This document shows, piece after piece, positions 3,641 through 8,568 of a stretch of 9,579 nt of DNA. The notes beneath the pieces were generated by a model that was given only the letters and a program-made list of their open reading frames with translations, was not told the origin of the DNA and ran no database searches. The stretch covers positions 1-9,579 of the forward strand of contig JAKSMY010000060.1 of NCBI GenBank assembly GCA_024400275.1, read 5' to 3'. The DNA comes from Paludibacteraceae bacterium. Its GTDB lineage: Bacteria; Bacteroidota; Bacteroidia; Bacteroidales; Paludibacteraceae. Each line of letters opens with the position of its first letter. The stretch's first letter is position 1. Both the position numbers and the translations under genes were made by a program.

Positions 3641-3681
3641 ATGTCACATATTTGGATTAAAAAATCTTCTACTATGGACAT

Positions 3682-3711
3682 AAAAAAGCAGGTCCGAATT
3701 TCTCGTCCTGC
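3682..3711 (-). terminator. Rho-independent terminator in the operon leader
   Basis: On the minus strand GCAGG (3711-3707) pairs with CCTGC (3692-3688). An inner stem CGAG/TTCG around an AAA loop is also present, and six T residues follow at 3687-3682. It lies about 40 nt before the start codon of the first polysaccharide gene, so it would stop read-through into that operon unless prevented. It may equally end the toxin-antitoxin transcript. Confidence 0.7.
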
Positions 3712-3767
3712 AGTTCTCGGCCCTAGGAATTGCCTTCTACGATCAGAACAAGCAACTCAGAACCTGC
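3710..3767 (-). promoter_or_regulatory. Candidate antiterminator hairpin
   Basis: On the minus strand GCAGGTTCT (3767-3759) can pair with AGAACTGC (3717-3710), with one bulged G. The loop contains its own stems: GAGTTGC with GCAATTC (7 pairs, one G-U) and TTCT with AGAA. The segment AGAACTGC overlaps the 5' arm (GCAGG) of the terminator at 3682-3711, so the two structures cannot form fully at the same time. That is the standard logic of a transcription attenuator. The trigger (protein, peptide or ligand) is unknown. Confidence 0.4.
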
Positions 3768-3853
3768 GGGTATGTATATACGCACACACGTACGCCTATA
3801 AATAATTTAGGTGTAGCGTATGTAATAAATACACACTTACAGCGATTCATCAT
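3743..3853 (-). CDS. Possible leader peptide, 36 residues
   Basis: A small reading frame starts at a doubled ATGATG (3853-3848) and stops with TGA at 3745-3743, inside the candidate antiterminator hairpin. The product is MMNRCKCVFITYATPKLFIG... and ends SCLF, rich in Cys, Val and Tyr. Its 3' part covers the GCAGGTTCT arm at 3759-3767, so ribosomes on it could change which hairpin forms. It has no strong ribosome site and no run of one codon as in amino-acid attenuators. It may be a chance frame. Confidence 0.2.
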   Translation of the reverse strand: MMNRCKCVFITYATPKLFIGVRVCVYTYPQVLSCLF

Positions 3854-3907
3854 TACTTCGTCTCGGATCGCATCTAAATTTCCTAGGTTTAGAACTGCCA
3901 AGATTCG

Positions 3908-4009
3908 AAGCGTAACAAACGCTTACTTTTTATTATGTCTTTTGCAGGACTTTCACCTGCTGCCGAAATCACTTTTCCGGCTTCCGCCTATCCTTTTAGT
4001 CCGTAGGCG
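3908..4009 (-). ncRNA. Cluster of four hairpins, unassigned structured RNA
   Basis: Within about 100 nt, minus-strand RNA can form four successive hairpins: CGCCTA/TAGGCG (3985-3990 with 4004-4009), GCCGGAA/TTTCGGC (3962-3968 with 3975-3981, one G-U), GCAGG/CCTGC (3944-3948 with 3956-3960, loop containing TGAAAGT), and AAGCG/CGCTT (3908-3912 with 3920-3924). It starts 6 nt after the stop of the downstream antitoxin gene. I could not match it to a known RNA class; the GGTGAAAGTCC box made me consider cobalamin riboswitch and group II intron parts, but other required elements are missing. Confidence 0.4.
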
Positions 4010-4014
4010 AGGGA

Positions 4015-4128
4015 CTATCGTTCTTCTACTAATTTCTTTAGTTCTTCTAAAGATGCGACTTGATGAACCCGTCCGGCTTTCATATCTTCTATTGCTGCAT
4101 CCAACTGCTTCTTAAATTCTTCACTCAT
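4015..4128 (-). CDS. Mini-antitoxin-like protein, downstream of toxin
   Basis: The gene codes for 37 residues, beginning MSEEFKKQLDAAIEDM, continuing KAGRVHQVASLEELK, and ending in VEER. It starts one nucleotide after the stop of the YafQ-like toxin (TGATATG) and has a good Shine-Dalgarno, AAAGGAG, inside the last toxin codons. The pattern hydrophobic-x-x-A-hydrophobic-x-D-hydrophobic-x-AGR....SLEEL matches the antitoxin encoded upstream of the toxin (10 of 28 aligned residues identical), and such AGR-containing tails are seen at the C-termini of RelB/DinJ-type antitoxins, where they wrap the toxin. At 37 residues there is no room for a ribbon-helix-helix DNA-binding domain. It may bind the same toxin, stabilise the complex, or be the remains of a longer antitoxin. 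The reading frame is well supported; the role is inferred. Confidence 0.7.
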   Translation of the reverse strand: MSEEFKKQLDAAIEDMKAGRVHQVASLEELKKLVEER

Positions 4129-4129
4129 A

Positions 4130-4417
4130 TCACTCTCCTTTCTTTCCAAATAAATCTACATGAGTGCCTGTGTCGGTTAATAACAATGTTAATTGACGAT
4201 TATCTTGACGCCAAATTAATAGCCAATCATCTTCAATATGACATTCCCATAAACCGGCATAACGACCTGTCAGTTGATGAGGGAAAAAAGATGCAGGAAG
4301 ACAACCATCCTCTACTAAAATAGCGACTACATCCCATAAATCATCAATGCGTTTGCCGCGCATTTTGCATACTTTAATAGAATGTTCAAATTGAGTGGTG
4401 GTATCTACGCTATACAT
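4130..4417 (-). CDS. YafQ/RelE-family toxin, ribosome-dependent mRNA endonuclease
   Basis: The 95-residue protein fits the YafQ branch of RelE toxins, which cut mRNA in the ribosomal A site and are held inactive by a bound antitoxin. It shows F...IK.CKMRGK..DDL (10-27), LP..F..HQLTGRYAGLWECHIEDDWLLIW (40-69), and LTDTGTHVDLFG (80-91). By position H47, H60, D64, W65, H86 and F90 correspond to the active-site set known in E. coli YafQ (H50, H63, D67, W68, H87, F91). One difference is D82 where the family usually has Arg before TGTH. The start overlaps the stop of the upstream antitoxin by 1 nt (TAATG) and has no Shine-Dalgarno, so translation is probably coupled to that antitoxin. Full length for the family. 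Confidence 0.9.
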   Translation of the reverse strand: MYSVDTTTQFEHSIKVCKMRGKRIDDLWDVVAILVEDGCLPASFFPHQLTGRYAGLWECHIEDDWLLIWRQDNRQLTLLLTDTGTHVDLFGKKGE

Positions 4418-4557
4418 TACTTAAACTTGTTTATCAACTCTGCTAAAGAAGAATAGTGATTAATGCGACCTGCTGCAATATCAGCCATCGCTTTCTCTAA
4501 TCCACATACAGGTTGAGATACGACATTCGGCATCGTCGTCATTGTTACATGTTGCAT
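4417..4557 (-). CDS. Mini-antitoxin, upstream partner of YafQ-like toxin
   Basis: The gene codes for 46 residues. It starts MQHVTMTTMPNVVSQPVC, then has GLEKAMADIAAGRINHYSSL, and ends AELINKFK. The ATG at 4555-4557 is fixed by a strong Shine-Dalgarno AAAGGAGG five nucleotides away (4563-4570) and lies about 24 nt after the predicted transcription start. The second half shares the A..D..AGR....SL.EL pattern with the other small protein of the cassette. Known YafQ partners (DinJ) have an N-terminal ribbon-helix-helix domain; here the N-terminus is a short Thr/Val-rich segment that cannot form one. It most likely neutralises the toxin encoded directly downstream (1-nt overlap). Autoregulation by this protein alone is doubtful given the missing DNA-binding domain. 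Confidence 0.75.
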   Translation of the reverse strand: MQHVTMTTMPNVVSQPVCGLEKAMADIAAGRINHYSSLAELINKFK

Positions 4558-4575
4558 AATAACCTCCTTTTTAAA

Positions 4576-4594
4576 ACTTTTGCGCTGCAAAAGT
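4576..4594. promoter_or_regulatory. Inverted repeat over the TA promoter, candidate operator
   Basis: ACTTTTGC (4576-4583) and GCAAAAGT (4587-4594) form a perfect 8-bp inverted repeat with a 3-bp spacer. It covers the -7 box and the predicted transcription start of the toxin-antitoxin cassette. This is where an autoregulatory operator would sit; it could also be a hairpin at the very 5' end of the mRNA. Confidence 0.5.
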
Positions 4595-4619
4595 ACAACT
4601 TTTTTCTGATATACGCAAA
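4588..4619 (-). promoter_or_regulatory. Bacteroidetes-type promoter of the TA cassette
   Basis: On the minus strand TTTG (4619-4616), a 20-nt spacer and TACTTTTG (4595-4588) match the consensus TTTG-N19-21-TAnnTTTG recognised by the primary sigma factor of Bacteroidetes. Transcription should start near 4581 and read the upstream antitoxin, the toxin, the second antitoxin and possibly the polysaccharide operon. Confidence 0.8.
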
Positions 4620-6629: not shown

Positions 6630-6635
6630 CACCGT

Positions 6636-6706
6636 GTTTTTCATGGTATTAGATTTAAGGTTAAGTAAAGATTGGGTTGTCGAGATGACAATCCTTCTTT
6701 TTTTTT
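6636..6706 (+). ncRNA. Probable short RNA (about 70 nt)
   Basis: The segment lies between a consensus promoter (6598-6629) and a rho-independent terminator (6674-6706). It contains TCATGGTATTAGATTTAAGG (6641-6660), a stretch that I have the impression recurs in Bacteroidales genomes, though I cannot name a family with certainty. An ATG at 6643 would start a peptide MVLDLRLSKDW, so a leader peptide is an alternative to a regulatory RNA. Read-through would enter tsaC. Confidence 0.5.
6674..6706 (+). terminator. Rho-independent terminator
   Basis: GGGTTGTC (6674-6681) pairs with GACAATCC (6687-6694), eight pairs with one G-U, around a 5-nt loop. TTC and nine T residues (6698-6706) follow. It separates the short transcript from the tsaC promoter. 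Confidence 0.8.
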
Positions 6707-6735
6707 GTTTATTTCGAATAATTTTTGTACCTTTG
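6704..6735 (+). promoter_or_regulatory. Promoter of the tsaC operon
   Basis: TTTG (6704-6707), a 20-nt spacer and TACCTTTG (6728-6735) match the Bacteroidetes consensus. Its TTTG box is made of the last three T residues of the preceding terminator plus the next G. The predicted start near 6742 leaves a leader of about 19 nt before the ATG at 6761. Confidence 0.8.
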
Positions 6736-6760: not shown

Positions 6761-7357
6761 ATGACTGATTTGCGTTACGAAAAAGAAGATTTGGAAACCG
6801 CCGTCCGTGTGATGAAGGAGGGTGGTATTATTCTATACCCCACGGACACGGTCTGGGGGATCGGTTGTGATGCCGCCAATGAGGAAGCGGTGCGTAAGAT
6901 TTTTGCACTCAAGCGCCGTGAGGACAGCAAGTCAATGCTGTGTCTGCTGGAAGGTGCCGGTAAGTTGCAGGGTTATGTGGATGTGCCGGATGCTGCATGG
7001 CAGTTGTTGGAAGCCACGGCACCGGAGGAGGGCTTGGACCAACGCCCACTCACTATTATCTACCCGCACGCGCGTAATGTGGCGTCCTCGTTGATAGCCG
7101 AAGATGGCAGTATCGGTATTCGTATCACGGATGAACCGTTCTCCAAGGCATTGTGCGAGCGTCTGCACCACCCTGTGGTATCAACCAGTGCCAACATAAG
7201 TGGCGAGAAAACGGCACGTATGTTCTGCGAGATTAGTCCGGAGATAAAAAACGGCGTTGATTATATATGCCGTTTCCGCCGTAATGACAACACACCGCAT
7301 AAACCCAGCGGTATCATCAAAGTGGGTCCTAACAACGAAATTGAGATTATACGATGA
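6761..7357 (+). CDS. tsaC: L-threonylcarbamoyladenylate synthase (YrdC/TsaC)
   Basis: The 198-residue cytoplasmic enzyme makes threonylcarbamoyl-AMP from threonine, bicarbonate and ATP, the first step of the t6A modification at position 37 of ANN-decoding tRNAs. The YrdC domain fills the protein: GGIILYPTDTVWGIGCDA (21-38) with the typical PTDT substrate site, KIFALKRREDSKSM (46-59), PLTIIYPH, GIRITDEP, and VVSTSANISGE (139-149). The Sua5-specific C-terminal domain is absent, so this is the short TsaC type. The ATG at 6761 lies just after the predicted transcription start. It is first in a plus-strand operon; its TGA overlaps the next gene's ATG by 4 nt. Functional link to the downstream sugar transferase is not obvious. 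Confidence 0.95.
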   Translation: MTDLRYEKEDLETAVRVMKEGGIILYPTDTVWGIGCDAANEEAVRKIFALKRREDSKSMLCLLEGAGKLQGYVDVPDAAWQLLEATAPEEGLDQRPLTIIYPHARNVASSLIAEDGSIGIRITDEPFSKALCERLHHPVVSTSANISGEKTARMFCEISPEIKNGVDYICRFRRNDNTPHKPSGIIKVGPNNEIEIIR

Positions 7358-8568
7358 CTTCCTATCGCAAAAAACAATTAGGGTATATCGCCGTAGATAT
7401 TGTATCTTCGGTCGTGGTATGGCTATGTTTTTTGCTGTTCCGATGGCTGGTATATGAAGGGCGTGTGTTCGGTTGGGAGAGTGTGTTGGTACCGGCATTC
7501 GATTTCTACCGCCCGCTGGTGCTGTATCCGTTGGCCTGTTTAGTGATTCATTACCTGACCGGTTATTATGTGCAAGTATGTCGTAAGGATTGGGGCAAAG
7601 AACTGCTGACCACCTTAGTGAGTGCAACCATTATTGCGTTGGGGGCGTTCTTTGTCATTATCATTGATGATAAGGTGGATGATTACAGCCATTACCTGAT
7701 GTCATTGTGGGTGCTGTGGGGGTTACAATTCGTGGTGTGTTATGTGCCTCGTTTGGCATTGACGCTGCATCATCGCTATCATACACAGAAAGATGAAGTG
7801 ATTATCTTGGAACCTCACGAGGGGGAAGGAGAGACTGAATTGTACCGCCGTATCGCTGAGGCTTATCCGTCCGGCAAGTCTATTTATATCGTGCCGCGGG
7901 TGCTGGATATTGTGACCGGTGCCGCTCATATCACACAATTGGATGATAATCCGTATATTTGCATCTCCGACTCGCATATGTCGGATGCCCAACTGGCTAT
8001 CAAGCGGGCAACGGATGTGGTGGTTTCTTTGGTGGCTATGGTTGTGCTATCCCCTTTATACGGAGTGTTGGCAGTGTTGGTTAAACGCAGTTCGGAGGGC
8101 CCTGTTTTCTATCGTCAGGAACGTGTGGGACTGTACGGAAGGACATTCTCTATCTGGAAATACCGCACGATGGTGGTGGACGCAGAGTCGTCCGTTCCGC
8201 AACTCAGTGAAGATAATGACCCGCGTGTCACTTCGGTGGGGCGTGTGCTACGCAAATATCGTTTGGATGAGTTACCACAGATGTGGAATGTGTTGAAAGG
8301 AGATATGTCCTTGGTGGGACCGCGTCCGGAACGGGCATACTTCATTCGCCAAATTGAACAAAAAGCCCCCTATTACTGCCTTATCTACAAAGTGCGTCCG
8401 GGCTTGACCAGTTGGGGCCCGATTAAGGTGGGCTATACCGATACGGTGGACAAAATGGTACAACGTCTCAACTACGATGTAGCCTATGTGGAGAACCAAT
8501 CGTTGGCATTGGATATAAAGATTTTATTTTACACCTTTGGTGTGCTGATTGACGGAAAGGGTAAATAA
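7354..8568 (+). CDS. Polyprenyl-phosphate sugar-1-phosphate transferase (WcaJ/PglC-type initiating enzyme)
   Basis: The 404-residue membrane protein should start glycan assembly by moving a sugar-1-phosphate from a nucleotide sugar onto undecaprenyl phosphate. The N-terminal half has about four membrane segments (residues ~10-33, 52-74, 84-104, 112-136), then a short cytoplasmic segment (145-205) smaller than the Rossmann-like part of WcaJ. The catalytic bacterial sugar transferase domain follows: a membrane re-entrant helix DVVVSLVAMVVLSPLYGVLA (221-240), EGPVFYRQERVG (248-259), FSIWKYRTM (265-273), DPRVTSVGRVLRKYRLDELP (289-308) with the key D305/E306, and GDMSLVGPRPE (316-326). It overlaps tsaC by 4 nt (ATGA) and is followed by xseB with 1-nt overlap. 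It may supply the first sugar for the glycan made by the minus-strand cluster, but nothing in the sequence proves that link. Confidence 0.92.
   Translation: MTSYRKKQLGYIAVDIVSSVVVWLCFLLFRWLVYEGRVFGWESVLVPAFDFYRPLVLYPLACLVIHYLTGYYVQVCRKDWGKELLTTLVSATIIALGAFFVIIIDDKVDDYSHYLMSLWVLWGLQFVVCYVPRLALTLHHRYHTQKDEVIILEPHEGEGETELYRRIAEAYPSGKSIYIVPRVLDIVTGAAHITQLDDNPYICISDSHMSDAQLAIKRATDVVVSLVAMVVLSPLYGVLAVLVKRSSEGPVFYRQERVGLYGRTFSIWKYRTMVVDAESSVPQLSEDNDPRVTSVGRVLRKYRLDELPQMWNVLKGDMSLVGPRPERAYFIRQIEQKAPYYCLIYKVRPGLTSWGPIKVGYTDTVDKMVQRLNYDVAYVENQSLALDIKILFYTFGVLIDGKGK

What the first reader, a model, noticed from the sequence alone, without database searches (positions are those of the whole stretch)
4015..4557. 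YafQ-type toxin gene sandwiched between two tiny related antitoxin-like genes
Reading the minus strand gives a 46-residue antitoxin-like protein, a 95-residue YafQ/RelE toxin and a 37-residue antitoxin-like protein, with a 1-nt overlap and a 1-nt gap. Both small proteins share A..D..AGR....SL.EL (10 of 28 aligned residues identical) and both lack room for a DNA-binding domain. Known YafQ systems pair one toxin with one DinJ antitoxin carrying a ribbon-helix-helix domain. A toxin with two minimal antitoxins, one on each side, is an unusual arrangement and could be a distinct TA subtype.
Basis: partly seen in the sequence, partly recalled or inferred. Interest (0 to 1): 0.75.

Follow-up and report, generated by a model that had tools for sequence, protein, structure and literature searches.

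The report
YafQ toxin with two mini-antitoxins
A small bacterial toxin gene sits between two tiny related genes that each look like only the toxin-gripping tail of its normal antidote; the trio is conserved in some Paludibacteraceae-type bacteria and looks like a real, slightly new kind of toxin-antitoxin module.

Summary
Confirmed. On the minus strand lie AT1 (46 aa, 4557-4417), a YafQ toxin (95 aa, 4417-4130; PF15738 E 1.3e-27) and AT2 (37 aa, 4128-4015). The trio is not chance: AT2 follows the toxin directly in 12 of 358 genomes of the family of G001; short AT1 occurs in 10 of 358, all among those 12; codon-position bias shows purifying selection on all three genes. Both small proteins align to the C-terminal half of the usual Bacteroidota YafQ antitoxin (hhalign E 4e-16 and 3e-12) and lack its N-terminal part. 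They look like free-standing toxin-binding tails, not remnants. New here: AT1 and AT2 carry strong Shine-Dalgarno sites (-12.5, -9.4 kcal/mol) and the toxin none (0.0), in a class whose ribosomes are reported to ignore such sites (PMC9976891, passages). Best reading: a three-gene type II operon in which two mini-antitoxins mask one YafQ. Toxins flanked by two antitoxins (faRel) or with two small antitoxins (SpoIISABC) are in print, so this is a new variant of a known kind. Neutralisation is inferred; nothing was tested at the bench.

The parts
4588..4619 (-). promoter: TTTGCGTAT (-33 type) and TACTTTTG (-7 box, TAnnTTTG)
   Evidence: read; same layout upstream of the antitoxin in most relatives shown; box names recalled for Bacteroidota
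4576..4594 (.). perfect palindrome ACTTTTGC-AGC-GCAAAAGT over the -7 box
   Evidence: arms of 8 bp in the window and in the nine short-AT1 loci examined (L001-L006, L008, L009, L018)
4562..4570 (-). strong Shine-Dalgarno of AT1 (AAAGGAGGT, -12.5 kcal/mol)
4417..4557 (-). AT1, 46-aa mini-antitoxin (toxin-binding tail without the N-terminal part)
4130..4417 (-). YafQ-family toxin, 95 aa, no Shine-Dalgarno of its own
   Evidence: PF15738 E 1.3e-27; E. coli YafQ in the PDB E 8.7e-10; 0.0 kcal/mol
4135..4141 (-). Shine-Dalgarno of AT2 (AAAGGAG, -9.4 kcal/mol) inside the toxin's last codons
4015..4128 (-). AT2, 37-aa second mini-antitoxin

Best explanation
A three-gene type II toxin-antitoxin operon. 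One promoter drives AT1-toxin-AT2. AT1 and AT2 are each a free-standing version of the C-terminal segment (two short helices, consensus ALEDIxxGRVxxxxSxxDLxxxI) of the ordinary Bacteroidota YafQ antitoxin; each is inferred to bind and mask YafQ. Both have strong Shine-Dalgarno sites while the toxin has none and starts on the overlapping TAATG, so the toxin is probably made by reinitiation and the antitoxins in excess. Without the N-terminal part neither is likely to repress the operon by itself; the palindrome over the promoter would be read by another protein or by none. Shown: genes, homology, conservation, selection, Shine-Dalgarno sites. Inferred: neutralisation, excess, loss of self-repression.
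For: AT2 directly after the toxin in 12 of 358 genomes of the family of G001 (in all, 39 of 358 match AT2's profile, the other 27 only through antitoxin tails); short AT1 at full length in 10 of 358, all within those 12 (26 of 358 match its profile in all). AT2 in 11 of 80 toxin loci. hhalign: AT1 v AT2 E 1.8e-11, AT1 v full-length 4.3e-16, AT2 v full-length 3.1e-12. AT2's profile finds the upstream antitoxin of the same operon in all 12 genomes at E 4e-10 to 3e-6. Purifying selection. Shine-Dalgarno means over 12 operons: AT1 -11.9, AT2 -8.6, toxin -1.7; background ORFs -1.3, n 49. The toxin part of a model of the relative L012 matches YafQ of the DinJ-YafQ complex, target-normalised TM 0.88. 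In two of the 12 genomes the toxin is broken (frameshift in G009, N-terminal part missing in G079) while both antitoxin frames are whole.
Against: No binding, toxicity or neutralisation was tested. The DinJ tail match is not significant (E 0.49 and 0.74) and ranks behind unrelated designed proteins. The read-through model of a full-length antitoxin plus toxin has pTM 0.58, so docking is not shown. Two AT2 genes have only weak sites (L009 -5.3, L017 -5.4), and in L015 and L017 the toxin has a site too (-9.2, -6.1). On the toxin tree five rows with a long antitoxin and no AT2 (L007, L014, L016, L033, L035) fall among the short-AT1 rows. The window's AT2 shares only 29-49% with the ten others. 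The broken toxins may be assembly errors.
Confidence: 0.62

Rival explanations
1. AT1 is the only working antitoxin; AT2 is a related helper with another job, such as neutralising a second YafQ in the cell, shielding AT1 from proteolysis or tuning the operon.
For: AT1 is more conserved (82% mean column identity, 22 invariant columns in 10 sequences) than AT2 (62%, 4 invariant in 11); 6 of the 9 genomes searched carry a second, more distant YafQ hit on another contig.
Against: AT2 keeps the same tail consensus, in most operons its own strong Shine-Dalgarno, and is under selection.
Confidence: 0.22
2. AT1 and AT2 act together as one inhibitor, replacing a dimer of the full-length antitoxin (an AT1-AT2-toxin complex).
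For: All 10 genomes with full-length matches to short AT1 also have AT2.
Against: Both align to the same segment of the full-length antitoxin, not to different halves; the genomes are kin, so 10 of 10 is weak.
Confidence: 0.12
3. One or both small frames are remnants or chance frames.
For: They are very short and have no Pfam or NCBIfam match above a cut-off.
Against: Conservation, size classes, codon-position bias and Shine-Dalgarno sites.
Confidence: 0.02

Closest known systems
DinJ-YafQ (E. coli, Lacticaseibacillus)
   Same: YafQ toxin with an antitoxin gene just upstream; the end of DinJ resembles the conserved tail here, below significance
   Different: DinJ has an N-terminal RHH part that dimerises and binds the operator (PMC9592637, passages); AT1 and AT2 have no room for one, and there are two of them
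Bacteroidota YafQ with its longer antitoxin (no Pfam or NCBIfam family in the examples scanned)
   Same: same toxin branch, same C-terminal antitoxin segment
   Different: one antitoxin with an N-terminal part; no AT2 found in 69 of 80 toxin loci, a few of which hold little downstream sequence
SpoIISABC (Bacillus)
   Same: one toxin, two small antitoxins related to each other (PMC4526809, abstract and section 17)
   Different: membrane toxin of another family; both antitoxin genes lie after the toxin, each with a putative promoter
faRel of Cellulomonas marina
   Same: toxin gene flanked by two antitoxin genes (PMC11782079, one passage)
   Different: alarmone-synthetase toxin; the two antitoxins are of different kinds, one an alarmone hydrolase
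PaaR-PaaA-ParE
   Same: three genes; an antitoxin without a DNA-binding domain (recalled)
   Different: the third gene is a transcription regulator (PMC4803016, passages)

Membership tests
YafQ toxin family (PF15738) | profile match above the curated cut-off | tested here: met
   96.4 bits against a cut-off of 30; the NCBIfam model TIGR00053 for YafQ stays below its cut-off (45.7 of 87.25)
YafQ toxin family (PF15738) | catalytic His/His/Asp/His of E. coli YafQ (residues recalled) | tested here: met
   H47, H60, D64 and H86 line up with H, H, D, H of E. coli YafQ; H47, H60, H86 invariant in 31 sequences, D64 in 90% or more
YafQ toxin family (PF15738) | ribosome-dependent mRNA cleavage | not testable with these tools
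   needs the bench
DinJ-YafQ system | antitoxin with an N-terminal RHH domain | tested here: not met
DinJ-YafQ system | DinJ-like C-terminal toxin-binding tail | tested here: inconclusive
   profile finds DinJ residues 71-85 at E 0.74 and 61-85 at E 0.49, behind unrelated proteins
Type II TA with two antitoxins (SpoIISABC, faRel kind) | two antitoxin-type genes next to one toxin gene | tested here: met
   gene layout and homology to the antitoxin tail
Type II TA with two antitoxins (SpoIISABC, faRel kind) | each protein neutralises the toxin | not testable with these tools
   needs the bench
Type II TA operon | antitoxin represses its own promoter | not testable with these tools
   a palindrome covers the -7 box, but similar palindromes also precede housekeeping genes

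The most novel reading that the evidence does not exclude
The operon reads the state of the ribosome. In Bacteroidia the anti-Shine-Dalgarno is hidden by bS21, bS18 and bS6, and Flavobacterium ribosomes lacking bS21 gain use of strong Shine-Dalgarno sites (PMC9976891, passages). Here only the two antitoxins have such sites. Ribosomes lacking bS21 would then raise antitoxin over toxin, and anything that fills ribosomes with bS21, for example a phage that brings its own bS21 (described for lake phages predicted to infect Bacteroidetes, PMC9723584, passages), would cut antitoxin supply and free YafQ: a phage or growth-state sensor built into translation. A second antitoxin after the toxin would sharpen that switch.
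Probability: 0.12. Interest if true: 0.85.

Novelty: new variant of a known kind. Interest (0 to 1): 0.55.

Why it matters
It would be a natural minimal antitoxin: 37-46 residues that do only the toxin-masking job, present twice. That makes a clean test of which part of a YafQ antitoxin is enough, and of how a TA operon lives without a self-repressing antitoxin. The Shine-Dalgarno pattern offers genes, beyond the rpsU and rpsR reported, in which to test whether Bacteroidota use ribosome composition to steer translation.

Tried and rejected
Chance or remnant frames: rejected. A TA-specific operator: the palindrome over the -7 box looked TA-specific at first; a wider sample showed palindromes of the form TACCTTTGC-nnnn-GCAAAGGTA before housekeeping genes, so the general palindrome is not TA-specific. 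The 345-nt stretch after AT2 as part of the TA system: rejected, four copies elsewhere lie between other genes. No viral relative of the toxin was confirmed in viral contigs; YafQ-like frames in 881 plasmid and 15 phage records, none at 60% identity or more. A first alignment of the noncoding element used the wrong strand for two rows and was redone. A toxin-AT2 read-through alignment (A7) aligned badly and was not folded. PHROGs gave only weak matches for AT1 and AT2 and PADLOC none. Papers: seven searches on TA topics and one on Shine-Dalgarno use; no title or abstract listed there tells of a YafQ with two mini-antitoxins, which is a statement about those listings only. Other papers seen only as passages: PMC11980606, PMC7584586, PMC7167474, PMC7591505.

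Full report
What is there. The minus strand carries AT1 (46 aa, 4557-4417), a YafQ toxin (95 aa, 4417-4130) and AT2 (37 aa, 4128-4015), with a shared base between AT1 and the toxin and one base between the toxin and AT2. The toxin matches PF15738 (E 1.3e-27) and solved E. coli YafQ (E 8.7e-10). AT1 and AT2 have no Pfam or NCBIfam match above a cut-off. The nearest toxins with a named source come from Paludibacteraceae and Bacteroidales assemblies, several from the rumen or reticulum by their titles; no genome is held for the window itself.

Conservation. A scan of the genome-contig collection confirmed 144 relatives of the toxin and kept the best 80 loci. An upstream frame ending within about 20 nt of the toxin start was read in 80 of 80 (by eye these carry the antitoxin tail): 44-46 aa in nine (L001-L006, L008, L009, L018), longer in 71, L022 as part of a 212-aa HicB fusion. 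A downstream AT2 is found in 11 of 80, those nine plus L015 and L017; 74 of 80 loci held at least 450 nt of the stretch searched. In a second set, 358 genomes of the family of G001, the toxin has a match in 121. AT2's profile matches in 39, of which 12 over its whole length and directly after the toxin; the other 27 match through antitoxin tails. Short AT1's profile matches in 26, of which 10 over the whole length, all among the 12. The other two of the 12, G149 and G180 (the genomes of L015 and L017), have a 67-aa upstream antitoxin. In two of the 12 the toxin is broken (a frameshift in G009, the N-terminal part missing in G079) while AT1 and AT2 are whole; assembly error is not excluded. The genes around the operon differ from locus to locus, by eye, which fits a mobile module.

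Selection. In 10 AT1, 11 toxin and 12 AT2 sequences differences fall mostly on third codon positions (AT1 351/285/999; toxin 1061/708/2564; AT2 487/353/1214), with median dN/dS of 0.09, 0.06 and 0.13. Left out: the long AT1 of L015 and L017 and the broken toxin of L018. Only 19 of 45, 21 of 55 and 30 of 66 pairs gave usable dS, and most pairs with the window are saturated, so the test speaks for the group more than for the window.

History. A tree of 78 toxins (three of 81 dropped as too short: L018, L051, L060; 93 columns, so many forks unresolved) puts the short-AT1 rows in one 14-row set (95/93) with five long-antitoxin rows without AT2 inside it; L015 and L017 form a separate pair. By score AT2's closest full-length relatives are the upstream antitoxins of L017 and L015 (E 4e-10 and 3e-9), which suggests, without proving, that AT2 began as a copy of such a tail. 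The N-terminal part changes between close toxins (L014 and L016 have another kind, by eye), so it seems exchangeable.

Translation signals. Shine-Dalgarno pairing in the window is -12.5 (AT1), 0.0 (toxin) and -9.4 kcal/mol (AT2); six neighbouring genes lie between -2.7 and 2.2. Over 12 operons the means are -11.9, -1.7 and -8.6; AT2 is at -7 or stronger in 10 of 12 (L009 and L017 weaker), and the toxins of L015 and L017 have sites of their own (-9.2, -6.1). Among 26 loci that I grouped near the window's toxin, the upstream antitoxin has a site of -7 or stronger in 22, against 2 of 54 other loci; the toxin in 2 of 26 and 0 of 54; background ORFs of at least 200 aa in 1 of 42 and 7 of 184. The grouping is mine, by toxin similarity: it holds one locus titled Prevotellaceae, and some titled Paludibacteraceae fall in the other group. 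AT2's site lies inside the last codons of the toxin. Ribosomes of Bacteroidia are reported to ignore such sites, those of Flavobacterium to use strong ones when bS21 is lacking, strong sites being frequent before rpsU or rpsR (PMC9976891, abstract and passages). This is the most surprising feature and the basis of the novel case.

Promoter. A palindrome with 8-bp arms covers the -7 box in the window and the nine short-AT1 loci, with matching changes in both arms; of 228 other TAnnTTTG sites in the loci examined 14 have arms of 8 or more. The exact form TACCTTTG-N3..8-CAAAGGTA is rare (18 sites in 9 genomes, reversed control 0; with N5..6 in 87 of 358 genomes, reversed control in 3), but a wider sample has it also before housekeeping genes. 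The 22-mer TACCTTTGC(A/G)GCGTCAAAGGTA stood 24-51 nt before a small gene, mostly with a second gene close behind, in 27 of 27 fetched sites: YafQ 8, nucleotidyltransferase-HEPN 4, DUF4160 3, PIN 2, GNAT 2, ParE-like 2, DUF6169 2, DUF3791-DUF3990 1, RelE-like 1, unknown 2. Pfam was run on 20 of these proteins (15 with a match above cut-off); the rest is by eye, and that the DUF pairs are TA modules is recalled or inferred. The site list was cut, so this is a sample, and the window has another variant.

Known or new. Toxins flanked by two antitoxins (faRel, PMC11782079, one passage) and with two small antitoxins (SpoIISABC, PMC4526809, abstract and one section) are in print. Two homologous mini-antitoxins on either side of a YafQ were not in the listings of the searches made. 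I rate it a new variant of a known kind.

Noticed in passing
window 3682-3981, minus strand: A 300-nt structured noncoding element ending in a terminator-like hairpin and T run, 33 nt after AT2 (fold of 3670-4014: z -7.3). Nearly full-length copies in G108 (90%), G109 (two), G099 and G111, between other genes, and shorter matches in more genomes (27 of 358 in all). Five copies aligned: 96 predicted pairs, 14 with changes on both sides. Two weak Rfam matches, both below gathering score. Looks like an undescribed dispersed RNA.
   Followed up: partly
L008:1-8285: A run of small TA operons (PIN, RelE-like, YafQ) with repeated intergenic stretches and a promoter palindrome before most of them; cassette-like. 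Stretches near 1400-1790 and 7150-7480 look like distant kin of the window's noncoding element (by eye).
   Followed up: partly
27 fetched sites, for example L179, L182, L185, L186: One 22-mer palindromic promoter sequence shared by small-gene-first operons of about eight unrelated, mostly toxin-antitoxin, families; a shared regulator or a shared cassette promoter.
   Followed up: partly
L022:1492-2130: The antitoxin tail fused to a HicB domain (PF05534 E 6.5e-17): another N-terminal part on the same tail.
   Followed up: no
window 6634-6707, plus strand: FopS small RNA (RF04319, 76.9 bits) between the pckA-like frame and the next frame.
   Followed up: no
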